64,000 nucleotides of DNA, taken from the NCBI RefSeq assembly GCF_003287355.1, contig NZ_QMIM01000013.1, forward strand, positions 1 to 64,000, given 5' to 3'. This document shows positions 22,719-62,729 of the stretch, piece after piece (within the stretch, counting starts at the first letter, position 1; each line of letters begins with the position of its first letter). A program made the translations under genes and the position numbers. The stretch comes from Halorubrum sp. 48-1-W. GTDB taxonomy: Archaea; Halobacteriota; Halobacteria; Halobacteriales; Haloferacaceae. The notes beneath the pieces were generated by a model. That model was not told the origin of the DNA, did not search any database, and saw only the letters and a list, made by a program, of their open reading frames with translations.

Positions 22719-25700
22719 TCAGATCACCTTCTCGTCGACGGTCTTCGGCACGATCTCGGCCTCCGCGAGCGGCGTGAGGTTGATCGCGACGCCGTGTTTC
22801 CGGTTCGGCCGGTAGCCGGCGGCCGTGACCTCCGAGCGCGCACGATCGGCCCAGTTCGAGGGGACCCGCGAAGCGACCGTCTCGCAACGATCGCCGATCT
22901 CCTCGGCCAGCGCTTTGTACTCGGCGAGCGGCGGGAGGTCGGCCACACCGTCGACCCCCACGTCCGCTGTGGCTGACTCGAGGTACGCCTCGTCGACGAC
23001 GGACGCGTCGTCGAGCCCGGTCGCGAGCGAGGCGAGGAGGCGCTCGTCCGCCGAGAGGTGGTCCCGGGGGCCCCCGTCGTCGTCGAGTAGGTCGGCCCCC
23101 TCGCGTTCGAAGTAGTACGTCATGAACAGGACCCCCGAACTGGCGTAGTGGTCCGAGCCCTTGAGCCGCCAGTTGAAGTAGTCGAAGAGGTCGGCCAGGT
23201 GAGCCTCGACGGGCTCGTCCGCGGGTTCGGCGTAGGCCTCGCAGGCCGCTTCGAGTTCCCCGAGCGTGTCGAGCCACTCCTCGCGCCGCTCGTCGACGTG
23301 CTCCCAGAACGTGTCCGAAAACGTGTCCTGAAACCACGTCTCGCCCGTACGGTCGCGTAGCCTCGACAGCGTCTCCACGCGTTTTCGGGTCTCCTCGCGG
23401 AAGGCAGTCACCTTCGGTGCCAGCTCCGCCACTCGCCGGCGATCGTCGACGTCGAACTCGCGTTCGTCGGGGCTACTGAGTTCCTGAATCACGTCCTCGA
23501 AGACGCCGATCTGATCGAGTCCGCTCGTGCTGTGTTCGTACGCCTCGACTGCCTCGGCCCGTTCGCTCGCGGAGAGCGAGTCGTCGTCACGCCGACGGGC
23601 TGCCGTGCTCCGTCGCTCGCGCAGTTCGGCCTTCCGCGGTTCGAGGTATCGGTTCGAGAGACGGTCGAACAGCCCGGTATCGACGCCGTGGTAGTCGACG
23701 AAGCACGCGAACCCCTCGCCGGTCGAGTCCGCGACGAGGCGTTCGGTGGTGAACCGCCAGACGATCGGGGCGTTCTCCATCGTGTCGACGTGGTAGTCGA
23801 ACAGGTCCTCGGCGAGGAACGCCCGGAGGTTGGGATACGCTTCGTCGGCTGCCGACGCAGCGCCGAGGGTCCCGTCGACCTCGGCGAGACGGGCTTCGGC
23901 GTGCTCGCCGTAGGCGTCCTCGAAGCGCTCGACGATCCGATCGAGCATGGCCGGCTGGTCGTCGGTGGCGTAGAGCGGGACGATGCCGTCGGGTTCCTCA
24001 CGGACGGCCTCCATCGCGAAGTGATGGACGAGGGCGACACAGTGTCCGTAACGATCGTCTTCGGCGAACAAGTTATCGGGCTGGTCAGCGCCCCGTAGTC
24101 GGATCTCCGTCTCGATCGCGCGTCTCGTTTCCTCGGTGACGTCGAACAGGTCGTAGACGAGCTCGTCGGATCGCTCGGCAACCGATCGGATCGCTGCCTC
24201 CCGGGAGCTGGTCCGCTCGTTGGCGGTCTCGACAGCCCGCGGGATCGGCGTCTCGGCCGTGATCGATCCGCCATCGATATCCGTCCGGCCGGCCGGTGCG
24301 TGGGCGGTATGCGGATGGTTCGTGTATACGAAGGACCGTTTCCGCTCGTCCGGGAGGACGTGTGGGCCGGCGTAGTACGGGCTGGTCGGGTCTCCCCGCC
24401 GTTGTGAGACGAACAGTTCGTACTGGGCTTTCGCCTGCGCTTCTACCCGTTCGCTCTCGATGCTCGACGGATCGTACGGGATCCGTCCGACGTCCCCCGG
24501 ATTCCACTCCCGATCCGGGGTCAACGAGAGGAACAGTCCGTGATAGAGCGTGGAGTTGAGGACGACTTGCATCGCCCACGCGGAGCAGGTGTGGGGGAAC
24601 ACCATCGGTCCCTTCTGATCGAAGATGCCACCGGCCGGATAGTAGCCGAACCGTCTCCCGGTCTCCTTGATGTAGGTCCACGTCAGTCCCTCACGGAAGT
24701 AGTAGTCGGTGTTCTGTGGTCGAGACGAGGGGAGACGTTTGATTTCGGCCCCGTCGTCGCCCCACCAAACCGTTTTGACGGTGCGCGGAAGCGTCCAGGC
24801 GTCCGTTCCCCCCTTGGCGAAGGGGTAAAACGGCTTCTCGAACGAGACCTCCCAGTGGTTCCGAACCAGCCGTGGGTTGTTCCCCGTTTGGAGGCCCGTT
24901 TTCACGTCCGCGACGGAATCGCCCTCGATCTGTGCGACGTCCGCGTCGACGAACGACGACCCCTCGAACAGCGCCCTCGCTTCGTCGGTCGTCCAGTAGC
25001 TCATCGGCGATTTCGGGAGACGACCGAACTCGGAGAGCTCGACGCGGTATCGTCTCCGGATCCCCCCGGAGGTGTCACCGAGGACCTCGGCAGTGAAGAC
25101 GCGCTCTTTCGACCCCGTGTCCGGGTCCGCCAGACGAATAAACGTCCCGTGTTCCCGTGTCCGTGTTCCGGATCGGAGCACGGTTCCGACCGTCCGAACG
25201 GTCGCGTTGTCCAATATCCCCAGTCCGAACTCCGCGAGGAAGTCGAACGAGCCGATCTCCCCTTGAAAGTCCTTCCTGAAGTCCTCGAAACTCCGTTTGA
25301 ACATAAACGATCGGGGGATGAGCATCCCGATCCTCCCGTTCGAAGCACAGAGGGTGTTACAAACCTCGACGAAGTTGACGTAGAACTCGGGGGAGTACGT
25401 ATACCGCTCCTCGACGTATTCCTGTACCGAGTCGGGCATTCTCCCCTCGGCGCCGTACGGCGGGTTCATCAGGGCCACGTCGTACTCCTGTGCCAGAACG
25501 TCCAGCAGTCGGACGAAACTCCGGAGGTCCCGTGTTACGAGGGAGTCCCCGTGTCGGTGATCCTCGACCGACTCGCGCAAACTGCTCAACACCTGCCCGA
25601 GCGTGTGGCTCCGTCGCGGGTCGTCGCCGAGGGTGAGTTGCATCCCGCCGACGTCGGCGTCGTCCTCGAACAGGTCACCCAACGTCCCGCGCACGTCCAG

Positions 25701-27017
25701 CAGACTCCCGATCCCGCGGACCTCCTCGAAGGCGTCGAGAACGCGCTGTAGGGCCCGTTCGACGTTCTCGTCGCTGCCGGCGACCTCCTCGAACACCGCC
25801 TCAACGCCGTCGATATCGGCGACCGACGCGTCCGCACAGACGATCCCGACCTGCGGCATGTCGAAGCCGTCCGCGCCCTCGGCCTCCGTCCGCGTGCGCG
25901 CTTTCAAATAGAGGTTGAACGCCGTTAGCTGACAGGCCCGCATGTCCAGGTCGACGCCGTGGAGGTTGTTCCGCAGGACCTCTCGGGGGATCTCGGCGTG
26001 GTCGACGTTCGTTTCGACCCGCCAGATCCGTTCGAGTACGTCGAAGGCGTAGAGGAGGAAGTGTCCGCTCCCACAGGCAGGATCGATGACTCGAAGTTCT
26101 TCGGGGTGGTCGAAGTCGGTCGGCTCGCCCTCCCCTTCGCTCGGGACGAGATACGTACAGAGATCGGCGATGCCGGGCGATCCCTCCGGCGAAAGCGGGC
26201 GGTTCTTCCGCTCGTCGGGGGAGAACGTCTCCTGCCGTTCAACGACCTCCTGTAACTCGCCGGTGTGTTCGAGGTAGAGTTTCCCGAGCGAGTTGTCGGT
26301 GAGCATCCGGACGACCCAGTGGGGTGTGTAGAACTGGTTCGCTGGGGGGACGTCCTCGGGGTCGAGCCCCTCGCGGTCTCCCTTACGGCGCAGATCGTCG
26401 AGGAGTTCGACGTTGTAGTACTCGTAGACCCACCCGAGGACGTCGTCGGCCCGCCAGACCTCGTCCGGGACCTCGTCGAGAAGTCGACAGAGGTCCTCGT
26501 AGGTGTCGGCGTCCGGGTCGACGAGGCTGTAGGCGGAGGTACGGTCGAAGAGGATCTCGATCTCGTCGGCCAGCCGGTCACACTCCTCGCGGTAGGCTTC
26601 GAGGATGGCCTCGTCCTCCTCGAGGAACTCCCGCATCATGACGGTGTCCCCCGCAGGCGTCAGTCCGCTCTCCATGAACACGGTGACCTCCTCGTCGAGG
26701 AACCCCCTAACTTCCATACAGCGCAGCCCAGCGAGGCGGTTCACGACGGTGTAGCCGACGCCGGTGACGTACCGTTCGTAGGCCTCCCCCCACGTGTGCT
26801 CCTCCAAGCGTTCCAGTTCGATCGCCTCGACTATCTTCCGGTCATCCTCGTCGAACGCGTCGGCGTCCTCGGGTTCGGTCTCGAGGCCGCGCTGACGGAG
26901 CTGGTACGCCACGTTCGCTTCCGCACGCTCCCGTAGGTCCTCGACGACGTCCTCGAGACGTTCACGGTCCGGCTTGTCGAGTTGGGCCGTCCGTCGAGAG
27001 GGAGACTCCCCTGCCAT
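22719..27017 (-). CDS. pglX: BREX adenine-specific DNA methyltransferase PglX, full-length orphan copy
   Basis: 1432 residues, the usual PglX size. Residues 228-243 (QFYTPHWVVRMLTDNS) begin the methyltransferase core. The SAM-binding motif DPACGSGHFLLYAFD is at 312-326, and the catalytic NPPY at 518-521 lies in DVALMNPPYGAEGR, both typical of gamma-class N6-adenine methylases. A long C-terminal half would contain target recognition. In BREX systems PglX marks host DNA and is also needed for phage exclusion. Here it stands alone, 26 kb from the brx operon and on the opposite strand. Its first 42 residues and last 63 or so align with the mini-PglX at 62367-62729, as does its leader. Confidence 0.9.
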   Translation of the reverse strand: MAGESPSRRTAQLDKPDRERLEDVVEDLRERAEANVAYQLRQRGLETEPEDADAFDEDDRKIVEAIELERLEEHTWGEAYERYVTGVGYTVVNRLAGLRCMEVRGFLDEEVTVFMESGLTPAGDTVMMREFLEEDEAILEAYREECDRLADEIEILFDRTSAYSLVDPDADTYEDLCRLLDEVPDEVWRADDVLGWVYEYYNVELLDDLRRKGDREGLDPEDVPPANQFYTPHWVVRMLTDNSLGKLYLEHTGELQEVVERQETFSPDERKNRPLSPEGSPGIADLCTYLVPSEGEGEPTDFDHPEELRVIDPACGSGHFLLYAFDVLERIWRVETNVDHAEIPREVLRNNLHGVDLDMRACQLTAFNLYLKARTRTEAEGADGFDMPQVGIVCADASVADIDGVEAVFEEVAGSDENVERALQRVLDAFEEVRGIGSLLDVRGTLGDLFEDDADVGGMQLTLGDDPRRSHTLGQVLSSLRESVEDHRHGDSLVTRDLRSFVRLLDVLAQEYDVALMNPPYGAEGRMPDSVQEYVEERYTYSPEFYVNFVEVCNTLCASNGRIGMLIPRSFMFKRSFEDFRKDFQGEIGSFDFLAEFGLGILDNATVRTVGTVLRSGTRTREHGTFIRLADPDTGSKERVFTAEVLGDTSGGIRRRYRVELSEFGRLPKSPMSYWTTDEARALFEGSSFVDADVAQIEGDSVADVKTGLQTGNNPRLVRNHWEVSFEKPFYPFAKGGTDAWTLPRTVKTVWWGDDGAEIKRLPSSRPQNTDYYFREGLTWTYIKETGRRFGYYPAGGIFDQKGPMVFPHTCSAWAMQVVLNSTLYHGLFLSLTPDREWNPGDVGRIPYDPSSIESERVEAQAKAQYELFVSQRRGDPTSPYYAGPHVLPDERKRSFVYTNHPHTAHAPAGRTDIDGGSITAETPIPRAVETANERTSSREAAIRSVAERSDELVYDLFDVTEETRRAIETEIRLRGADQPDNLFAEDDRYGHCVALVHHFAMEAVREEPDGIVPLYATDDQPAMLDRIVERFEDAYGEHAEARLAEVDGTLGAASAADEAYPNLRAFLAEDLFDYHVDTMENAPIVWRFTTERLVADSTGEGFACFVDYHGVDTGLFDRLSNRYLEPRKAELRERRSTAARRRDDDSLSASERAEAVEAYEHSTSGLDQIGVFEDVIQELSSPDEREFDVDDRRRVAELAPKVTAFREETRKRVETLSRLRDRTGETWFQDTFSDTFWEHVDERREEWLDTLGELEAACEAYAEPADEPVEAHLADLFDYFNWRLKGSDHYASSGVLFMTYYFEREGADLLDDDGGPRDHLSADERLLASLATGLDDASVVDEAYLESATADVGVDGVADLPPLAEYKALAEEIGDRCETVASRVPSNWADRARSEVTAAGYRPNRKHGVAINLTPLAEAEIVPKTVDEKVI

Positions 27018-27057
27018 GATCCGGTATGGTCACCCCGAATCACAGTAGGGTCATTAA
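27013..27057 (-). promoter_or_regulatory. Upstream leader shared by both pglX copies (orphan copy)
   Basis: Reading towards the gene, TTAATGACCCT-CTGTGATTCG, seven unrelated bases, then CATACCGGATCATGGC end at the start codon. The same blocks with the same spacing precede mini-pglX at 62327-62369. Shared sequence stops upstream of TTAATG. It may be a promoter/operator or the edge of a duplicated cassette. Confidence 0.75.
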
Positions 27058-27131
27058 GTTGTCGAGGGTGTCGTAGAACTCTCACCGAGACGGGTTATTT
27101 CGGTGAAGTATAACGGAACTATCCATCAGAA

Positions 27132-30685: not shown

Positions 30686-31180
30686 TATTCATAATTCTAG
30701 AGCGTTCATAGGTAAACGTTTCGCGTGTTACCAGGTGCTCACCCTCCTCCCCCTCACCTCCCAGCGCGTGTGGGTCAGATTCTCGGCGGGCAGTAGAGGC
30801 GTCGAGACGGCTGATCTCAAAAACCGATATATCGAAAAATGGCCGGATCTACGGACGTCAACCTCCGGTCAGGCCCGGTCGATGTTGTACGTGGCACTGC
30901 TTGAAACGGTGACGACATGGTACGGATATGCTGCCGGCGTGGTCATGGCAGGGACAGTGACAGTGATTGTACGAGAAACTCCACGCTGTCCGTTGAGTAT
31001 CTCGACTCCGGTTCAACTGAAAAACGAGTCCGCCCTCCCCGAATTGAACTCACCGAGACAGTCCGGGCGTGCGGCTCGCTTCGCTCGCCGGTCCGGGCTG
31101 TGACTCGTCTGCTCAATTCGGGTCAGTTGTCCCTCACGGACACCAACCGTTCGCTGTCGCTCACGGTTGCTGAGGTTCAG
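30686..31180. other. Intergenic region next to tRNA-Tyr, no supported gene
   Basis: About 500 bases, relatively A/T-rich near 30690-30720 and 30815-30845. A 157-codon open frame crosses it but has no domain, no promoter and poor composition. The notable content is a copy of the tRNA-Tyr 3' end at 31027-31049. Confidence 0.55.
31027..31049 (-). repeat. Duplicate of the tRNA-Tyr 3' end (att-site-like)
   Basis: A 23-base perfect direct copy of 31179-31201, which covers the acceptor and T-stem 3' part of tRNA-Tyr plus two flanking bases. It lies 130 bases downstream of the tRNA's 3' end. Integrases that use tRNA genes leave such copies at the far end of the inserted element, so this may be an att remnant. 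Confidence 0.7.
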
Positions 31181-31254
31181 TCCGCCCTCCCCGAATTGAA
31201 CGGGGGACAAGCCGATCTACAGTCGGCTGCTCTACCAGGCTGAGCTAAGGGCGG
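31181..31254 (-). tRNA. trnY: tRNA-Tyr (anticodon GTA)
   Basis: On the minus strand the cloverleaf is complete. The acceptor stem CCGCCCT pairs with AGGGCGG, with A as discriminator. The D arm is TAGCTCAGCCTGGTAGAGCA. The anticodon arm CCGACTGTAGATCGG has anticodon GTA, and the T arm contains CCCCCGTTCAATTCGGGGG with the TTCAATT loop. No intron is present. CCA is not encoded, as is normal in archaea. Its 3' end is duplicated downstream. Confidence 0.95.
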
Positions 31255-53289: not shown

Positions 53290-54126
53290 ATGGATATCTC
53301 ATCTGACGGCGGGTGTTCGTGGGTTTCTTCGCTCTCTCGTCAGCTCTCACCCGGGGAGGTGAACGCGGATCTGACCCGCTGTGGACTCCTCGTCGAGCGT
53401 GCCGAGGAACTCGCGCGACTCTACCGGGAGCACGGCAACTGGAACGACGTAAAGCGGGTCTGGTTCGACGAGCGGCTCTCGAACCGGAGCACCCGGAGCA
53501 GTTCGCAGGCGATCTTCCGGGTCCTGACGTCCCGACTGAAGAACGCCCCGACGAGCCTCCCGAACCCGCGAGATCTCCCCGCCGTCCTGGAGGAATGTGC
53601 GACAACGCGCGACAAAGCACAGGTCCTCTACCTCTATCTCGTCGAGGACGACGCCCTGGTCCGGTACGCCATCCACGAGTACGCGTCTCGCCTCCAGAGC
53701 AGTAACCACGAGCCACTGGATCTCTCGGATGAGACGCTCACGGATATCCTCCGTTCGTTGGAATACACGGACGGATCCACCTTCGACTACGCGGACTCGA
53801 CGACTCGCCGATGGTGTGACGGGTTTCGCTCGGTGATGCGGGAGATCGACGTGCTCGGAGGACGGCAGGACGTCGTGGGATCGCCACCCGCTACGGGTAT
53901 TATCCCGCTCCTCGTCTCACTGGGATACTCGTATGAGGTCGGCAGCGACGGATGGGTGGACTCCCCGAGAGGCCTCCTGTACCTTTTTCAGCCCGAAGGT
54001 CGCTGGAACGAGTTCTTCGATCGCGCCGTTCGGACGGACGCGTGGACGTTCGTCGAACTCCACGGTGACCTCCAGCTCCGCCCGGAGGGGACGACGTACG
54101 ACTGGGTGACCGGAGGTGACGTCTAA
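53290..54126 (+). CDS. brxA: BREX protein BrxA (DUF1819-like)
   Basis: 278 residues. The central part fits DUF1819: CGLLVERAEELARLYREHGNWNDVKRVWFDERLSNRSTRSSSQAIFRVLTSRLKN. Then comes the helical region TTRDKAQVLYLYLVEDDALVRYAIHEYASRL. The C-terminal 100 residues differ from typical short BrxA proteins of about 200. BrxA is a small NusB-like, DNA-associated component of BREX defence. It is first in the operon; its stop overlaps the next start (TAATG). It starts 215 bases from the divergent acyl-CoA dehydrogenase gene. Confidence 0.82.
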   Translation: MDISSDGGCSWVSSLSRQLSPGEVNADLTRCGLLVERAEELARLYREHGNWNDVKRVWFDERLSNRSTRSSSQAIFRVLTSRLKNAPTSLPNPRDLPAVLEECATTRDKAQVLYLYLVEDDALVRYAIHEYASRLQSSNHEPLDLSDETLTDILRSLEYTDGSTFDYADSTTRRWCDGFRSVMREIDVLGGRQDVVGSPPATGIIPLLVSLGYSYEVGSDGWVDSPRGLLYLFQPEGRWNEFFDRAVRTDAWTFVELHGDLQLRPEGTTYDWVTGGDV

Positions 54127-57100
54127 TGTCGAGGCGCGATTGGTTCAACGATCTCCCGGAGGGATTCGAGGAGTCCGTCCGGATCGACAGCGCCGAAGAC
54201 GACCACCGGTTTCGGGCGATCCAGTCCTATCACGTGACGGAGGATTCGGCACGGTTTCTCACCGATTTCGTCAACCGCACGCTCGGGCGTGCCGACGACA
54301 TGCGAACCGGATCCAACTACTGGCTCTACGGCTACTATGGAAGCGGAAAGAGCCACCTCCTGACCGTTCTCGACGGCCTCATGGATACCGCGTGGGTAGC
54401 GGGGCGGCGGGAGACCGTATGGAGCGAACTCACTCCGACTGGCGGTGCTAACGCGGAACTCGATGCGCTTCGAGAACGATGGGAGGCCGTTCACGACGAG
54501 TACCACGTCGTTCCGATCTCCATGAACTTACTGAAGTACCAAGGGCAAAAACAGCGGAGTTTCAGCGAGATCGTCCTCCGGCACGCTCATCGGAACCCAC
54601 TCCTCACCGGTGTCGATGACGCGTTCTCGGAGGGACTGTCGCCGCAAATAGCCGTCGCGTACTTCGAGTACTGGTACAAGGACGAAGCGCCGTGGCCGGA
54701 CCGTCAACGACGGGCGAAGTCAGTCGTCGATGCGGTCACTCCGGAAGATTCGACGTACGCCTGGGAACAGCGGAGCGAGGACGACGGCCTCTGGCGGGCA
54801 GTTCAACAGTATCAGGCCCTCTCGGACGTCGTACTGCCGGAGCTTTTCGAGAACGTCGTCGGAAGTCGGGACGGCTATTCGGACCTCCAGCCATCCGATA
54901 TCGACCCGGAGACGGCCGTCGCTCGCCTAGAGAGGCTTCGGAGGGAACGGGAAAGGGAACGCGACAAACCGGTGAAGCTCGTGCTCCTGCTCGACGAAGT
55001 GAGTCTCTTCGTCGGTACGAACTTCGAGCGGCTCACCGAGCTCCAGACGCTCGCAGAGAACGTCGATGATATCGGCGACGGGAACATCCAGCTCGTCGCG
55101 ACTGCGCAGGCGAAGATCGAGGACGTTCAGCCACAGTTCGCCGCCCACGGTGCGGACTTCAGCATCGTCAAAGACCGATTCCCCCACCGCTACCAGCTCC
55201 CGAGCCGTCACGTCGGCGATATCGCTCAGCGCCGCCTCTTCGAGAAAACGCCAGACGGACGCGACACCGTCGAGCGGATCCTCGAGACAACGTCGGTCGA
55301 CCCGCAGACCTCGCTCGTCTACAACCAGGCGAAACAGAATACGACGCCGCCACTCGACGAGATCGACGGGGGGGAGCTCGTCGAATGCTATCCGTTTCTT
55401 CCGTACCACGCACCGCTGTTCCTCGAGATCCTCTTCAACTTGCGGAAGAAGGCACCGGACCCGGCGAAGTCCATCTTCTCGGGGACTGCGAGAGCGATCC
55501 TGGCGCTCATGCACGGCCTGTTGACGGAGTGGATCGAAACGGGCGAGGAGGACCATGTCATCTCGCTCGTCGACTTCTACGAACTCATCCGTCCGGAGCT
55601 ACGGGAGATCCTCCCGAAGGACGTTCGCGTAGTCGAGGGGTCGAAGACCGCACCCGGCGCCGTGGATCCGGATCGACTCCACGGAATCGCCGACGACGTC
55701 GATGACGGCTCGCTAGACGAGTTCGACCTGCGTGTCGCGAAGGCCGTCCTCCTCCTCCAGAACGTCCACGACATCGTGCCGATGAACGAGAACAACCTCG
55801 CGGTCGCCGTCATGTCCGACCTCGACGGCCGGGCCCAGATCACCACCGCCAATCGCGTCGAGGAATCCCTCGACCGAATGGAGAAGTATATCCGCCCGAC
55901 GGACGACGAAACGGGCCCACGCTATCGGTTCGCGACACAGGAAGAGCGCCTCATCTACGACGAGACCGAAACGAAGGAAGCGAATCCGGACTGGGACGCC
56001 GTCCTCGAGGCGCTCGACGAACACCTCTGGGCTGATCTCACAACGGACCTTTCGCTCCCGGAGTCCGTCCCCTACGGCGAAACGACCGACGAGTACCCCG
56101 TCGCCTATCGATTCACGGTCGACACCCTCGACTTCGAAACCCGCGTGGATGCCGAGAACGCACTCGGGATCGACGTCGAGGTTCAGGGTATCCACCCCGA
56201 CGCGGACGTCGACCGGATGGGAGAGAACACGCTCTACTGGGAGATCGATACGGAGGGGTTAGACGACCTCCGGGCCCAGCTCGTCGACTGGTGGGCGCTT
56301 CGGGACGCAGTCGAGGCTCGTGACGCGCCACCCGCCGTCGAGCGCGATCTCGAAGAACGCGCGAGATCGGTCACACGTAAGGTCGTGAGTGCGATGACGT
56401 CGGGATCGTTCGCCGTGAAAGACCGGACCGATATTCGCGGTCTCTCGACCGCGGTGAAAGCCGCGGTGGATGCGACGTACCCGGACGATTTCCATCCGAT
56501 GATGCTCCAGGTGTCGGACGAGCGCCTACAGGAGCTCGCCAACGTGGAGGGTGCTGACCCGCTTCCGGGGTGGGCCCGAACGGTCCAGGTCCCATCGACG
56601 AACCGAACGGAGGACGCCGGGAGACAGCCCATCCAGAACAACGTGCTGGTGAACACTGGTCGTCAACTCAACGGAACCGACGACGGGCTCGCGCTCTCGA
56701 CGGTTCTCGACGAAATCATCGACAACAAGCCCTACTATTCGGACGTCCGTCCAGCCCTCCGTGCGATCCTGTGGGGGTTCTGTCGCCGTGGACGTCTGCT
56801 TCCGCTCGACGAGGACGGGGATGCGCTCGCTGACGAGCGGGTTCTGACCGGTCCGGCTGCGACGATCCGCCTCAAACTGCTCGAGGTCGCCGACCCCGGA
56901 GAAGCTCTCGAAACACACGGATTCAAACGGACCACCGAGACCGTCACGACCGGGCTCATCAACCTCCGTCGCGCCGACGAACGGCTTCGTATTCGACAGA
57001 GTAACCTCCGGGAGGACGTACAGTTAGCTCACGAAAACGTGGCTACGGACGCCGTTTCGTCCCTCTTGGAGTCGTTCCTCGAAGCGCTCACACGTCGTCG

Positions 57101-57881
57101 AGACACGACCGATCAACGGCTACGAACCATCAAGGACCGGGACGACGGCCTCCTGGACGCGATCGAGGAGACGAAACGAGAGCGGGAGTGGCTCGACGAC
57201 GTCGTCGAAACGTGGGAGCTCCGACGATCCACCCTCGGCCGCTGGGATGCGGAGTTGACGCTCGGCGACAGCCGCTTCGACTGGCTCGAGGAGCGCGCTG
57301 TAACGACCATCGACGCTCGCCGGGAGCGGGTCGCCGAGTTCGACGGCGCGTGGTGGACCGCGGACGGGTGGAGTCGACTCGTCGGGACGCTCGAGGGAGA
57401 TGCGACGAGTGACCTCGAACGGTCGTGGGAGGCGTACACCGACCGACACGACCTACACGCGCTCGCTGAAGACATCGAATCGAACGACTGGATCCGTCCG
57501 CTAGCGGATCGGCCCGGTAGCGCTCGGAGAGGCTTCGAACGCACATACATCACACCGCTTCAGAACGTGAAAGACTGGTACGACTCGATCGAGACCGCGA
57601 TACGGCCCCTGCTGAACGACGAAGAGACCGAGTTCGAGGGAGTGACAGCGGAGATCCGGACCCTCGAAACGCTCGACGAAGCGGTCGACGTCCCGCTGGA
57701 TGACCTTCGCGGACGCCTCGAGGCGCTCGAAACGGTTCTCGGAGACGTTTCACCCGACGATGTAGACGCGGTCGGCGTCGTTCCGGACGATCGCCAGTCC
57801 ATCGACGAACGGCTCGCGCGTCTCGTCGGATCGGGAGCAGTCGATGTCGAGGAGACCGATACCGGGGTGGTGATTCGATGA
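54126..57881 (+). CDS. brxC: BREX ATPase BrxC (first copy)
   Basis: 1251 residues. Walker A is at about residues 69-76 (LYGYYGSGKSHLLTVL) and Walker B is VKLVLLLDEVSLFVG. This is followed by AAA-like helices (QLVATAQAKIED) and a long alpha-helical C-terminal half. This is the DUF499/BrxC-PglY type of large ATPase found in every BREX system, needed for host methylation and phage exclusion. It is translationally coupled to brxA (one-base overlap) and brxB (ATGA overlap). It is paralogous to the larger ATPase two genes downstream. Confidence 0.88.
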   Translation: MSRRDWFNDLPEGFEESVRIDSAEDDHRFRAIQSYHVTEDSARFLTDFVNRTLGRADDMRTGSNYWLYGYYGSGKSHLLTVLDGLMDTAWVAGRRETVWSELTPTGGANAELDALRERWEAVHDEYHVVPISMNLLKYQGQKQRSFSEIVLRHAHRNPLLTGVDDAFSEGLSPQIAVAYFEYWYKDEAPWPDRQRRAKSVVDAVTPEDSTYAWEQRSEDDGLWRAVQQYQALSDVVLPELFENVVGSRDGYSDLQPSDIDPETAVARLERLRRERERERDKPVKLVLLLDEVSLFVGTNFERLTELQTLAENVDDIGDGNIQLVATAQAKIEDVQPQFAAHGADFSIVKDRFPHRYQLPSRHVGDIAQRRLFEKTPDGRDTVERILETTSVDPQTSLVYNQAKQNTTPPLDEIDGGELVECYPFLPYHAPLFLEILFNLRKKAPDPAKSIFSGTARAILALMHGLLTEWIETGEEDHVISLVDFYELIRPELREILPKDVRVVEGSKTAPGAVDPDRLHGIADDVDDGSLDEFDLRVAKAVLLLQNVHDIVPMNENNLAVAVMSDLDGRAQITTANRVEESLDRMEKYIRPTDDETGPRYRFATQEERLIYDETETKEANPDWDAVLEALDEHLWADLTTDLSLPESVPYGETTDEYPVAYRFTVDTLDFETRVDAENALGIDVEVQGIHPDADVDRMGENTLYWEIDTEGLDDLRAQLVDWWALRDAVEARDAPPAVERDLEERARSVTRKVVSAMTSGSFAVKDRTDIRGLSTAVKAAVDATYPDDFHPMMLQVSDERLQELANVEGADPLPGWARTVQVPSTNRTEDAGRQPIQNNVLVNTGRQLNGTDDGLALSTVLDEIIDNKPYYSDVRPALRAILWGFCRRGRLLPLDEDGDALADERVLTGPAATIRLKLLEVADPGEALETHGFKRTTETVTTGLINLRRADERLRIRQSNLREDVQLAHENVATDAVSSLLESFLEALTRRRDTTDQRLRTIKDRDDGLLDAIEETKREREWLDDVVETWELRRSTLGRWDAELTLGDSRFDWLEERAVTTIDARRERVAEFDGAWWTADGWSRLVGTLEGDATSDLERSWEAYTDRHDLHALAEDIESNDWIRPLADRPGSARRGFERTYITPLQNVKDWYDSIETAIRPLLNDEETEFEGVTAEIRTLETLDEAVDVPLDDLRGRLEALETVLGDVSPDDVDAVGVVPDDRQSIDERLARLVGSGAVDVEETDTGVVIR

Positions 57882-58462
57882 CGACCACCGCATACCGGGC
57901 GTTCAAGGAGACCCTCGTTCGGTTCGCGAACGGTCGACACGGCATCCGAAACCCGTTCGTCATCGCGGCCGTCCAGCCCCGTCTCGAACGCCGGGTCGCA
58001 AAGCGCCTCCAAACCTGGGTTGCCGGTGAGGAAACACCCGCCCTCCCCGAAGGGGCGACGGTCCAGCCGATCTGGCTCGACGAACTCCTGGCTCGGACCG
58101 ACGCGTACCGCCTCGTGGTCGACCTCGGTGAGGCGATCGAACCGGCGCAGCTAGAAACGACGCTTCAGGACCGACTCACTGAGGAGCTCGTCTCGACGAT
58201 GCTCGAGACGGAACTCGACCACGACGACGCGGAACGTCAAGATCACATCGTGTTACTGCTCCATCTGGGGAGCCTCTATCCGTTTTCGCGGGCTTCGGAG
58301 CTCCTCGACGAACTCGACCGGCGAAAGGTGAAATCCACCATCGGCATCCCCTTCCCCGGCGAACTCGTCGGCGGGAAACTGAACATCTACGGCGGCGACT
58401 CGAGACACTACTATCCTGCCCACCAGATCGACGGAAAGGTCCGGGAGGAGGACCTCCAATGA
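57878..58462 (+). CDS. brxB: BREX protein BrxB (DUF1788-like)
   Basis: 194 residues, the usual BrxB length. The C-terminal half carries the family stretch HIVLLLHLGSLYPFSRASELLDELDRRKVKSTIGIPFPGELVGGKLNIYGGDSRHYYPAHQI. An earlier part holds LVVDLGEAIEP. BrxB is a small essential BREX component of unknown biochemistry that is thought to join the BrxC/PglZ complex. It overlaps both neighbours by four bases (ATGA), so the four genes brxA to the second ATPase form a tightly coupled unit. Confidence 0.85.
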   Translation: MTTTAYRAFKETLVRFANGRHGIRNPFVIAAVQPRLERRVAKRLQTWVAGEETPALPEGATVQPIWLDELLARTDAYRLVVDLGEAIEPAQLETTLQDRLTEELVSTMLETELDHDDAERQDHIVLLLHLGSLYPFSRASELLDELDRRKVKSTIGIPFPGELVGGKLNIYGGDSRHYYPAHQIDGKVREEDLQ

Positions 58463-61400
58463 GTCTCGGAGAGCTGTTCCGCGATGACCCGACCCGAGAC
58501 CTCGAGGAGGTCCAGACGGTTCGCGGCCGCGACGATCTCGCGACGGACGTCCGCGAGTTCCACCAGACGGAGAGCGCGGAGCGCGTTCTCACGGAGCTCG
58601 GGGACATCGTCGAAGCGCAGGCCGAGCCACGGTTCCTCTACGTCGAGGCGACCTTCGGCTCCGGGAAAACCCACCTCCTCAAGCTCACCGGCCTCGTCGT
58701 CGACGGCGGTTCGCCGGACGCCGACCTCGGTGACCAGCTCGCCGAGAAGTGGGCAGGGTTCAACGATCTCCAGCAGTCACTGACGAACTCGCACGTCGAC
58801 CGGCTCGAACCCGTCTTCCTCAATCTCCTCGACCGTGACGCCTCGAAGGAGCCGCCGCTCCCGTTTCTCATCTTCGAAGGGATGGGACGTGAACTCGGCT
58901 ATCCGACGGATCCGAACTGGTTGCTCGAGTGGGCGTGGCGGCTCGATATGGAGTACGACGGTGTCTGGGAAGCGCTGCAGAGCTTCGAACACGAGGGGCA
59001 AACGTTCGACGACGTCCGCTCCGAGAAAGCATTCCTGCGAACGTGGCTCTACAGCGCCCTCCCGGAACTGCCGGAGACCGATGACACTGACCTCGACACG
59101 GAAGCGGACGTGAAGGCGTCCATCGACGAGGCAGTCGCCGACGTCGACCCGGAATCGTTCGGCCCCGAGGAGCTGGTCGAGCGCGTCGAGACGGCAACGG
59201 AGACCCTCGACCGACGCTCCGGCGGAACGCGCGCCGAGTTCATGTTCGGGCTCGACGAGGTCGCACTGTTCGTGGGTGACAGCACGCAGCGATACCGGGA
59301 GTTCGAGGAGACGATGGACGCCCTCCAGCACGGACCGAACCCCGTCGTCGTCACGACGGGACAGTACTCCCCCCCGGCCACTCGCGAGAGCCTCATCGGG
59401 GAATCGGCCGACGATCACTGGACGCAACGACAGGTCACGCTCGAGGGGGCCGACACCGAGATCGTCGTCCGAAAGCGCTGGCTCGAAAAGAGCACCACCG
59501 GGGGGAATCGCGTCTCCGAGCTCCTGTCGTCGATGCCCGACCTCACGCTGGATGCGTACGGCTCGATAGCGAGCGTGGACCCGGATCCCGTCGCGTCCTA
59601 CCCGTTCCGGTCGTACGACCTCTCGCTCCTCAGGGCGGTGATGCAGGAACTCGTCACGCAGGGGCGCGAGACCGACAGGGACTACATCCAGGGTCGAGCG
59701 TTGCTCGTGTTGGTGCGCTCGCTCTTCACGAAGCTCGGGTGGGCGGACAAAGCGGAGGGGGCACTCGTCACATGGGACGTCCTCTTCGATCTGCTCGTCG
59801 AGGAGACGCCGTACGTTCCGATCTGGGTGCAGGACATGCTCGGGAGCACCCTGATACCGACGTTCGGCGACGAGGATGCCCGGGAGGTGCGCGTCGCGAA
59901 GGCACTCTACCTCCTGAACCGGACTCCCGCCGTCCCGGCGACGCCGGAGAACCTCGGACGGCTGCTCGTCGGTGACGTCACGGCGTCGATCGACACCGTC
60001 GTCGGGGAGACGACGGACGCGCTCGAAACCCTCGTGGACAAACGCCTCGTCCTCACGGAGACCACCGACGAGGGCGATGAGGAGTACACGCTCGTTTCCG
60101 AGGAACAGGAGGGTATCCTGAGCCGTGCGCAGACGAAAGCCGAACAGGTCTCCCCTCACCAGCTCTCCGCGTGGGTCGAGGCTCGACTCCGGGAGCACGA
60201 CTCGTTCCTCCGAAGCGAGGAGACGCGACACGAGGTCGACGTCGGCGACGAGCGTCTCGTCCCCCTCCGCTACGAGTACTCGATCCTCGATACCGTCTCT
60301 CGCGCACCGAACCGTGAGCACGATGCGCTCCGTGTGCGGGTACTCGCGACGGGTCCGGAGGAGCTCGCCGAGCAAATCGACATTTGGCAGGAGGTCAACG
60401 ACGGGCTGAGCGGCGGCGAGCACCTCCTGTGCGCCATCGAGGTTCCGGATGGCGTCCTGGATCGGATCCGGAACGTCATCGGGATGGAACAGGTGCTCGG
60501 AGCGGAGACGGAGACACACGAGGACCTACAGCGCGAGCATCGGACGAACAAGCGACGCCTCGAAGCGGCCATCGCTCAGATCATCGAGGACGCGCGCGTC
60601 CACGACGTTCACGAGCAGGTCGGCACGCGCGAGGCTGCACTCGAAGACGCCGTTCGCGGGACGCTCACGTCCGTCTTCGGGGACCACCGGCGTGTCCTGT
60701 CGCGGCCGCTCGTCGAGGTCGACGACGCGAAAGCGATGGCGTCGTTCTTCCGCGGAGACGGGTCGTGGCCGCTGACGGACGTCGACGCGACCCTTCTCGG
60801 CGTCGACACGGCCGAAGCCGGTTTCACGGAGGAGGGGTGGGCTGCGGCGTTCGTCGACCGGTACGAGTCACGGAAGGCGGTCGACGCGGAGACGGTCCTC
60901 CGACAAACACGGACGGCCAACGGCGACTACCGAGGAACGCCGCGGGAGTCGATCGCGGCGCTGCTCATCACGCTCGCGACCTCGAACGAGGACATCGCGC
61001 TGAAACGAGACATCCAATACGTGACGGACCCGGCAGCGATCGGTCGTGCCGTCCGAACGAAGGGCGGGCTGACGTCGCTCCAGGTTCGCTTCGACGTCGA
61101 CATCACCGACCCGAAGAAGGTGCGGACGCTCGCAGGTACCGTCGTCGGCTCCTCGGTGGCGGGTTCGGGACCGGACGAGTGGATGGCGGAACTCGGCGAC
61201 TGGGCGGCTGGGAACAGCATGGACGTCAAGCGCACCGTCTCCGCGGTCGAACGCGAGTTCGGCGTCGACCTCGACGCGCTCGAGGCCGTCCTCCGACCGG
61301 CGCTCCAGGGAGAGACGCTCTCGACGTCGACGGTGCGGTCGGGGACCGATCTGGACGCCGTGCTCAGTGACGCGGAGACGTTCAGGGTCGCCTGGGAGCT

Positions 61401-62292
61401 GTTCGTTCCCGCACCCGACGAGGAGTCGCTCTGGGAGCGGTTCGAGACGGCCCTCGACGAACTGGAGTCCCTGGGCATCGACGAGACGGTCGCCGCCCGG
61501 ATGCGGAAGACCGCGTCGGCCTCGACGGTCCCGAGCGTCGACACGGTCGAAGCCCGCATCGAGGACGCACGCGGGAGACGCGTCGATCACCTCACCGAGC
61601 AGTACCGTCGGGTAACCGGCGAAACGCCGGCCAGCGAGCGTCCGGTGGAGATCCGCGAGCGGCTCACCGATCGGCTCCGGGAGAACGACGAACAGGTCCA
61701 CGACGTGCTCGAACGGGGGGCGACCGAGTTCGAGGGCGTCGCCTTCGACGCGCTCGACGACGTCCTCACCGCGGTCCGGAGCGGCGAAGTCATCACCGAA
61801 TCCGACCTGGCCGACGACGCCCTCGTGGGGGACCTCGAGACGTACGAGACGTGTCGGGAACTCTTCACCGAAGGTGCGGGTGGGTCGCGCTGGGCGTCGC
61901 TGTGTGCTACTCACGACCGCCTACAGGAGGAACATCCGGACTCGCCCACGACCGACGCGATCGCGGTGACGCTCGGCGCGGCCGTCCCGCCGGAACCGAG
62001 GGAGGTGGATCGGCTACTGGCGGCAGCCGAGGATCCGAGGCAGGCCCGTCCGGACGACGACCGCTGGAAGACGCTACAGGAGCGGGGCAACGAACTCCGA
62101 GTCGAGCTCCCGAACGCCGACGTCACCGACGAGGTTACCACTGCCCTCGAGGCCGAGGAGCGACCGGACGAGGCGCGTGTCGAGGAACTCCTCGCCGAGG
62201 CCGGGACGCTCCTCGAGCGCGTCCGGGGCGTCCGGGAGACGCTCGACGGCCTGGAGGACGGGAGCATCGTCGTCATCGAGACGTCGGTGTGA
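58459..62292 (+). CDS. brxC: BREX ATPase, second BrxC/PglY-like copy
   Basis: 1277 residues. Walker A ATFGSGKTHLLKLTGLVV is at about residues 64-71. Walker B is FMFGLDEVALFVGD, matching the LLDEVSLFVG of the first BrxC, so the two are paralogues that have diverged widely. Long coiled-coil-rich acidic regions make up the C-terminal half. A duplicated BrxC/PglY is what I recall for haloarchaeal (type 5) BREX; the two proteins probably form different parts of one machine. The stop is 75 bases before mini-pglX, the only real gap in the operon. Confidence 0.85.
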   Translation: MSLGELFRDDPTRDLEEVQTVRGRDDLATDVREFHQTESAERVLTELGDIVEAQAEPRFLYVEATFGSGKTHLLKLTGLVVDGGSPDADLGDQLAEKWAGFNDLQQSLTNSHVDRLEPVFLNLLDRDASKEPPLPFLIFEGMGRELGYPTDPNWLLEWAWRLDMEYDGVWEALQSFEHEGQTFDDVRSEKAFLRTWLYSALPELPETDDTDLDTEADVKASIDEAVADVDPESFGPEELVERVETATETLDRRSGGTRAEFMFGLDEVALFVGDSTQRYREFEETMDALQHGPNPVVVTTGQYSPPATRESLIGESADDHWTQRQVTLEGADTEIVVRKRWLEKSTTGGNRVSELLSSMPDLTLDAYGSIASVDPDPVASYPFRSYDLSLLRAVMQELVTQGRETDRDYIQGRALLVLVRSLFTKLGWADKAEGALVTWDVLFDLLVEETPYVPIWVQDMLGSTLIPTFGDEDAREVRVAKALYLLNRTPAVPATPENLGRLLVGDVTASIDTVVGETTDALETLVDKRLVLTETTDEGDEEYTLVSEEQEGILSRAQTKAEQVSPHQLSAWVEARLREHDSFLRSEETRHEVDVGDERLVPLRYEYSILDTVSRAPNREHDALRVRVLATGPEELAEQIDIWQEVNDGLSGGEHLLCAIEVPDGVLDRIRNVIGMEQVLGAETETHEDLQREHRTNKRRLEAAIAQIIEDARVHDVHEQVGTREAALEDAVRGTLTSVFGDHRRVLSRPLVEVDDAKAMASFFRGDGSWPLTDVDATLLGVDTAEAGFTEEGWAAAFVDRYESRKAVDAETVLRQTRTANGDYRGTPRESIAALLITLATSNEDIALKRDIQYVTDPAAIGRAVRTKGGLTSLQVRFDVDITDPKKVRTLAGTVVGSSVAGSGPDEWMAELGDWAAGNSMDVKRTVSAVEREFGVDLDALEAVLRPALQGETLSTSTVRSGTDLDAVLSDAETFRVAWELFVPAPDEESLWERFETALDELESLGIDETVAARMRKTASASTVPSVDTVEARIEDARGRRVDHLTEQYRRVTGETPASERPVEIRERLTDRLRENDEQVHDVLERGATEFEGVAFDALDDVLTAVRSGEVITESDLADDALVGDLETYETCRELFTEGAGGSRWASLCATHDRLQEEHPDSPTTDAIAVTLGAAVPPEPREVDRLLAAAEDPRQARPDDDRWKTLQERGNELRVELPNADVTDEVTTALEAEERPDEARVEELLAEAGTLLERVRGVRETLDGLEDGSIVVIETSV

Positions 62293-62326
62293 GCAGTTCG
62301 TCGCTCGACTCCTCCGACCGGCACCA

Positions 62327-62369
62327 TTAATGACCCTGCTGTGATTCGACTCGAGCATACCGGATCATG
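62327..62369 (+). promoter_or_regulatory. Upstream leader shared by both pglX copies (BREX copy)
   Basis: TTAATGACCCTGCTGTGATTCG, seven bases, CATACCGGATCATGGC: the same blocks at the same spacing as at 27013-27057. It fills most of the 75-base gap after the second ATPase gene. Whether it acts as an internal promoter or is only the edge of duplicated DNA is unknown. Confidence 0.75.
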
Positions 62370-62729
62370 GCGGAGCACCCTCTCTCACGACGGACGGCCC
62401 AACTCGACAAGGCGGAACGCGAGCATCTCGAGGACGTCGTCGAAGACCTGCGGGAGCGCGCGGAAGCGAACGTCACCTACCGGCTCCGCCAGCATGACCC
62501 CGAAGACGAGCCCGGAGACGTCGACGAGGACGAAGAACTCGCCTGGGAGATAGCGGACGCTTGCGAGGACTTCACAAAGGGGATTCGGAACGACCGGGCC
62601 GACCGCGCCCTCTCCGAGATCACGACCGCCGGCTACCGGCCCAACCGGTCACACGACGTCGCGATCAACGTCACGCCGTTCGCCGAGGCCGAGATCGTCC
62701 CGAAGACCGTCGAGGACACGGTGCTGTAG
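62367..62729 (+). CDS. Mini-PglX: N- and C-terminal ends of PglX joined, core missing
   Basis: 120 residues in the pglX position of the BREX operon. Residues 1-42 (SRRTAQLDKAEREHLEDVVEDLRERAEANV) match the start of the 1432-residue PglX at 22719-27017 in 33 of 42 positions. Residues 58-120 match its last 63; over the final 43 (GYRPNRSHDVAINVTPFAEAEIVPKTVE) 32 are identical. About 1,320 residues are absent, including DPACGSG, NPPY and the target-recognition half, yet the frame, start and stop are intact. It cannot be a methyltransferase. It may be a deletion relic or a retained docking piece. pglZ starts two bases after its stop. Confidence 0.88.
   Translation: MAEHPLSRRTAQLDKAEREHLEDVVEDLRERAEANVTYRLRQHDPEDEPGDVDEDEELAWEIADACEDFTKGIRNDRADRALSEITTAGYRPNRSHDVAINVTPFAEAEIVPKTVEDTVL

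What the first reader, a model, noticed from the sequence alone, without database searches (positions are those of the whole stretch)
62367..62729. The BREX operon carries only a 120-residue mini-PglX; full-length PglX is an inverted orphan 35 kb away
Seen directly: mini-PglX matches the first 42 and last 63 or so residues of the PglX at 22719-27017, with roughly 1,320 residues cleanly removed in frame, and lies exactly between the second ATPase gene and pglZ. The orphan has all catalytic motifs. Established: BREX needs PglX for host methylation and exclusion, and pglX is known as a hotspot of truncation and phase variation in other BREX types. Inference: defence here depends on a trans-acting PglX, and the mini-protein may be a dominant adaptor that still docks to the BREX complex through conserved ends, or a relic tolerated because the orphan complements it.
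Basis: partly seen in the sequence, partly recalled or inferred. Interest (0 to 1): 0.9.

Follow-up and report, generated by a model that had tools for sequence, protein, structure and literature searches.

The report
Collapsed BREX methylase gene, intact orphan
In this salt-loving archaeon the anti-virus BREX operon has lost nearly all of its own DNA-methylase gene, leaving a 120-residue remnant, and an intact methylase gene 35 kb away very likely does the job instead; the same loss with an intact copy elsewhere is seen in three other haloarchaeal genomes.

Summary
At 62367-62729, between brxC2 and pglZ of an otherwise intact BREX-5 operon, lies an in-frame 120-residue fusion of the two ends of PglX. 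A complete 1432-residue PglX sits alone at 22719-27017 on the other strand. The mini gene is not the orphan with its middle removed: its C-terminal part comes from another PglX body type.

Several hundred haloarchaeal genomes were searched. One other in-frame mini was found (Haladaptatus sp. DYF46), with a different breakpoint, plus one broken remnant and one slot holding an unrelated gene. All four operons keep brxA, brxC1, brxB, brxC2 and pglZ, and all four genomes carry a full-length orphan pglX. Among 51 genomes with a slot pglX, 5 also carry an orphan. Orphans keep both conserved ends, usually a pglX-type promoter, and every inspected genome with one has BREX genes.

Best reading: independent deletions of the operon copy, probably tolerated because PglX is supplied in trans. 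The window's mini looks like a decaying relic: it lost a tryptophan invariant in 72 of 72 intact PglX, and no confident fold is predicted. A working adaptor is unlikely but not excluded. Trans action is inferred, not shown.

The parts
62367..62729 (+). mini-PglX, 120 aa: N end of PglX (about residues 1-52) fused in frame to a type-B C end (about residues 53-120); junction near 62517-62534
62319..62366 (+). pglX-type promoter-like upstream region of the mini
   Evidence: 81% identical to the orphan's upstream region, mutual best match; motif trained on operon pglX copies, p 0.0004
53290..54126 (+). brxA, 278 aa
   Evidence: PADLOC and Pfam BrxA
54126..57881 (+). brxC1 (BrxC/PglY ATPase), 1251 aa
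   Evidence: PADLOC BrxC, 1741 bits
57878..58462 (+). brxB, 194 aa
   Evidence: PADLOC and Pfam BrxB
58459..62292 (+). brxC2 (second BrxC/PglY ATPase), 1277 aa
   Evidence: PADLOC BrxC, 1710 bits
62732..64000 (+). pglZ, 716 aa, runs past the window to contig position 64882
   Evidence: NCBIfam BREX-5 PglZ, 1041 bits, cut-off 250
22719..27017 (-). orphan full-length pglX, 1432 aa, type-A body
   Evidence: NCBIfam BREX-5 PglX, 2144 bits, cut-off 900; motifs DPACGSGHF and NPPY; body cluster 2
27018..27065 (-). pglX-type promoter-like upstream region of the orphan
   Evidence: motif p 0.0012

Best explanation
The mini-PglX is the relic of the operon's own pglX, a type-B PglX, after an in-frame deletion of about 1,300 codons, probably between short direct repeats near its two ends. 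The deletion was probably tolerated because a second, type-A pglX at 22719-27017, with its own pglX-type upstream region, makes full-length PglX that joins the BrxB/BrxC/PglZ proteins in trans. The result would be a working BREX-5 system with one, possibly different, DNA specificity. Shown: the architecture, the orphan's intact frame and motifs, recurrence in other lineages, association of slot loss with orphans, body-type mismatch, signs of relaxed constraint on the mini. Inferred: docking in trans, methylation and defence activity, specificity change, the repeat mechanism.
For: Four operons without the pglX body but with the other five genes uninterrupted, each with a full-length orphan elsewhere, against 5 of 51 slot-intact genomes (Fisher p 0.0004). 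All 11 inspected genomes with a full-length orphan also carry BREX-5 genes, although only 50 of 392 genomes of the order have BrxC2. Orphans keep both conserved ends and the catalytic motifs, and 8 of 12 have a pglX-type promoter motif at p < 0.01. The mini's C piece is type B, the orphan type A. Signs of decay: Trp invariant in 72/72 intact PglX is Arg in the mini; 5 of 27 conserved C-end columns changed; dN/dS 0.71 in the C block, 0.27 in the N block. [quoted passage not shown]
Against: Slot pglX broken by transposase genes (G017, G275, G267) or a frameshift (G303) without any orphan shows that loss without a back-up also occurs; counting these gives p 0.017. Two of the four slot-loss genomes are from one orphan-rich genus. 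No methylation, expression or defence data. The parent of the mini is not known, so decay and repeat mechanism rest on relatives.
Confidence: 0.7

Rival explanations
1. The mini-PglX is a working small protein: its two ends dock on the BREX complex and adapt, regulate or compete with the trans-acting full-length PglX.
For: In frame in two distant genera; the two ends are well conserved across PglX; the Haladaptatus mini deviates at 0 of 27 and 1 of 21 conserved columns. In type I BREX, mutations in the C-terminal region of PglX uncouple methylation and restriction (PMC13326643).
Against: Different junctions, so no inherited mini family; no further in-frame minis in the searches; in this mini an invariant Trp is lost and the C block shows relaxed constraint; AlphaFold2 gives pTM 0.27 with the last third under pLDDT 50. 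In G122 the remnant is frame-broken while pglZ is intact.
Confidence: 0.08
2. The BREX operon is dead or dying after losing its pglX, and the orphan is a separate solitary methylase unrelated to it.
For: PglX loss is expected to abolish type I BREX activity (PMC13326643); slots broken by transposases without an orphan exist; G284 has an orphan but no detectable PglZ.
Against: The other five operon genes are intact in all four slot-loss genomes; full-length orphans were found only in genomes with BREX genes among those inspected; orphans keep the PglX ends and promoter-like region.
Confidence: 0.15
3. The remnant is kept as a cis element: it holds the promoter and the translated leader with a stop/start junction needed to express pglZ.
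For: Conserved pglX-type upstream region in front of both minis (p 0.0004 each); stop codon 2 nt before the pglZ ATG; N block more constrained than C block.
Against: G122 lost the upstream region and the frame yet keeps an intact pglZ; no expression data. Compatible with the relic explanation.
Confidence: 0.07

Closest known systems
BREX type 5 system of haloarchaea (PglX NF033454, PglZ NF033444)
   Same: brxA, brxC, brxB, brxC, pglX slot, pglZ in this order; PglX and PglZ score far above the type-5 cut-offs
   Different: The pglX slot holds only an end fusion, and the full-length PglX is encoded 35 kb away
Type I BREX PglX/BrxX (solved chains 8c45, 8zek, 9ewz)
   Same: Methylase plus target-recognition architecture; sets the specificity of methylation and defence (PMC11341690)
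   Different: Encoded in the operon; the solved chains align at most to residues 68-1134 of this PglX, not to the two ends kept in the mini
BREX-5 operon of Haladaptatus sp. DYF46 (L071/L174)
   Same: In-frame end fusion of PglX between brxC2 and pglZ, with a full-length orphan PglX elsewhere on the same contig
   Different: Another family, operon 48-56% identical, 135 aa, different junction, ends fully conserved

Membership tests
BREX type 5 system | brxA, brxB, two brxC/pglY, pglX and pglZ in one operon | tested here: inconclusive
   All present and intact except pglX, which is a 120-aa end fusion in the slot; full-length pglX lies 35 kb away
BREX type 5 system | PglX and PglZ of type-5 families | tested here: met
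   NF033454 2144 bits (cut-off 900) for the orphan; NF033444 1041 bits (cut-off 250) for PglZ
BREX type 5 system | BrxHII helicase (part of type 5 as I recall it) | not tested
   The genome was not searched for it; the protein after pglZ (L030:4682-5803) has no NCBIfam match
BREX type 5 system | N6-adenine methylation of an asymmetric motif and virus exclusion | not testable with these tools
   Needs methylation sequencing and virus assays
BREX-5 PglX methylase (mini-PglX as a member) | methylase domain with SAM and catalytic motifs | tested here: not met
   The mini scores 132.5 bits against a cut-off of 900 and holds only the two ends; it is a remnant, not a PglX
BREX-5 PglX methylase (orphan as a member) | full-length frame, SAM and catalytic motifs, conserved ends | tested here: met

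The most novel reading that the evidence does not exclude
BREX-5 in haloarchaea works with PglX subunits supplied in trans by scattered pglX genes that carry their own promoter, so that specificity can be changed by swapping or recombining orphans; and the end fusions left in the operon, at least the well-conserved Haladaptatus one, act as small docking proteins that tune which PglX the complex uses.
Probability: 0.08. Interest if true: 0.8.

Novelty: new variant of a known kind. Interest (0 to 1): 0.5.

Why it matters
PglX decides which DNA motif BREX protects and attacks. If it can be supplied from elsewhere in the genome, an operon annotated as lacking pglX is not necessarily dead, and specificity could change without touching the operon. 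The four slot-loss genomes, and the extra orphans in others, are natural tests of whether PglX works in trans and whether one BREX core can use several PglX. In Halorussus salinisoli LT46 the operon and orphan copies appear to share a central stretch, which points to exchange between them.

Tried and rejected
Mini as the orphan with its middle removed: rejected, body types differ. Mini as an inherited protein family: rejected, junctions differ and no further in-frame minis were found. Phage or viral carriage: no match in phage records or viral contigs. Orphans on a shared mobile unit: no common neighbour genes; only G122 and G120 share one flank, with pglX the other way round. Assembly artefact made from the orphan: unlikely, the ends differ by 15-18% at DNA level. 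Recent conversion between mini and orphan: only the promoter and the 5' block are mutual best matches, the 3' block is not. Structure of the mini: low confidence, so no fold search was made. Paper searches found no description of trans-encoded PglX in BREX-5, but the library is partial and the paper I tried for the original BREX classification is not held.

Full report
OBSERVATION. The ORF at 62367-62729 encodes 120 residues. It lies 74 nt after brxC2, and its stop codon is 2 nt before the pglZ start. Its residues 4-67 and 53-119 match the two ends of the PglX at 22719-27017 on the other strand, at 63% and 60% identity; these are the only other such matches in the genome. At DNA level two blocks align: 200 bp at 82%, including about 40 bp upstream of the ATG, and 131 bp at 85%. 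PADLOC assigns both ends to PglX and the flanking genes to BrxA, BrxC, BrxB and BrxC; NCBIfam names PglX and PglZ as type 5. The orphan scores 2144 bits against a cut-off of 900 and has the motifs DPACGSGHF and NPPY.

ORIGIN OF THE MINI. Among 72 intact relatives the PglX bodies fall into two large groups. Next to the junction the mini reads IADACED; '-AC-' at this place occurs only in the first group, while the orphan (IGDRCET) belongs to the second. So the slot once held a different kind of PglX from the orphan, and the orphan is not its displaced body. Relatives carry CTCGACGAG or close variants in both the N-end and the C-end regions that meet at the junction, which fits a deletion between short repeats; a similar shared stretch is seen for the Haladaptatus mini. 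The parent genes are not available, so the repeat mechanism is an inference.

RECURRENCE. Searches with the mini covered 52 genomes of the genus, 170 of the family, 392 of the order and three other families, with overlap, and a named genome collection and plasmids. One further in-frame mini was found: G313 = Haladaptatus sp. DYF46, another family, 135 aa, different junction, operon 48-56% identical, full-length PglX about 144 kb away on the same contig. G122 has a frame-broken C-terminal remnant in the slot and an orphan elsewhere. G120 has an unrelated helix-turn-helix-like gene in the slot (read from the sequence, not family-searched) and an orphan about 290 kb away. In these three comparison operons the matched parts of brxA, brxC1, brxB, brxC2 and pglZ are free of stops.

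ASSOCIATION WITH ORPHANS. My count is 51 genomes with pglX in the slot, whole, split or cut by a contig end; five of them (G057, G119, G123, G168, G329) also have an orphan, that is, a pglX with no complete BREX gene near it. All four slot-loss genomes have one: Fisher p = 0.0004. Orphans are common in genus g18, which holds two of the four; leaving that genus out gives about 0.008 by hand arithmetic. Counter-examples exist: slot pglX interrupted by transposase genes in G017, G275 and G267, and split in G303, with no orphan found; counting these as losses gives p = 0.017. Three operons (G387, G284, G318) have lost pglZ as well. All 11 inspected genomes with a full-length orphan (the window genome, G313, G122, G120, G123, G168, G119, G057, G329, G125, G284) also have BREX-5 genes, while only 50 of 392 genomes of the order have a BrxC2 match. 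pglX genomes that appeared only were not inspected for context.

ORPHANS LOOK LIKE BREX SUBUNITS. Both ends are conserved in orphans about as in operon copies, and 8 of 12 orphan upstream regions match a 30-bp motif trained on 23 operon copies at p < 0.01. In Halorussus salinisoli LT46 (G329) the contigs holding the operon copy and the orphan copy break at the same two places in pglX, each with 127 identical bases, as expected if the middle of both genes is the same and was collapsed in assembly; the collapsed piece itself was not read. The two orphans of G168 share 430 bp at 99.5%, and tandem copies in G193, G403 and G024 share long stretches at 90-98%. These patterns point to recombination among pglX copies.

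IS THE MINI FUNCTIONAL? In the window's mini the tryptophan present in 72 of 72 intact PglX is arginine, 5 of 27 conserved C-end columns are changed (4% of intact PglX reach this), and dN/dS against the orphan is 0.71 in the C block and 0.27 in the N block. Part of this change may predate the deletion or lie on the orphan's branch. The Haladaptatus mini shows no such excess. AlphaFold2 on a 21-row alignment gives two helices, mean pLDDT 65 and pTM 0.27, with the last third mostly under 50. This does not support a self-standing domain, but folding on a partner is not excluded.

MECHANISM. Most likely the operon's own pglX was lost by deletion while the orphan supplied PglX in trans. [quoted passage not shown] One Salmonella study could not recover a pglX deletion in three allelic contexts (PMC9009780), which would be a further reason why loss needs a second copy. 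For BREX-5 all this is by analogy. A haloarchaeal PglX-like methylase is listed with the motif CTGGAG, m6A (PMC10609329), so methylation is measurable in this group.

VERDICT. A real and recurrent, but rare, rearrangement of a known system. The trans-PglX reading is well supported by comparison and unproven by experiment; the adaptor reading is weak.

Noticed in passing
L098, L129, L131, L134, L137, L138, L144: Several BREX-5 operons carry two pglX genes with pglZ between them; in some the ends or the methylase half are 90-98% identical while other parts differ, as if specificity parts are swapped.
   Followed up: partly
L077, L078, L079, L080 (Halorussus salinisoli LT46): Contigs with the operon pglX and an orphan pglX end at the same two places with 127 identical bases, suggesting a shared central stretch collapsed in assembly.
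   Followed up: partly
L102, L104, L116, L117, L118, L121, L136, L151: A second layout of BREX-5: pglX is divergent from brxA instead of lying between brxC2 and pglZ.
   Followed up: no
L081, L082, L083: Slot pglX interrupted by transposase-like genes in three genomes.
   Followed up: partly
L074 and L115: Orphan pglX of two species of one genus share one flank, but the genes are of different body groups and in opposite orientation to it.
   Followed up: no
window 31010-31254: tRNA-Tyr at 31180-31254 (-); part of its sequence (tccgccctccccgaattgaac) is repeated about 150 bases away, as read; could be the mark of an integrated element.
   Followed up: no
L207 (PUMP01000010.1): A contig labelled Candidatus Nealsonbacteria carries a haloarchaeal-type divergent BREX-5 locus; possibly a binning error.
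   Followed up: no
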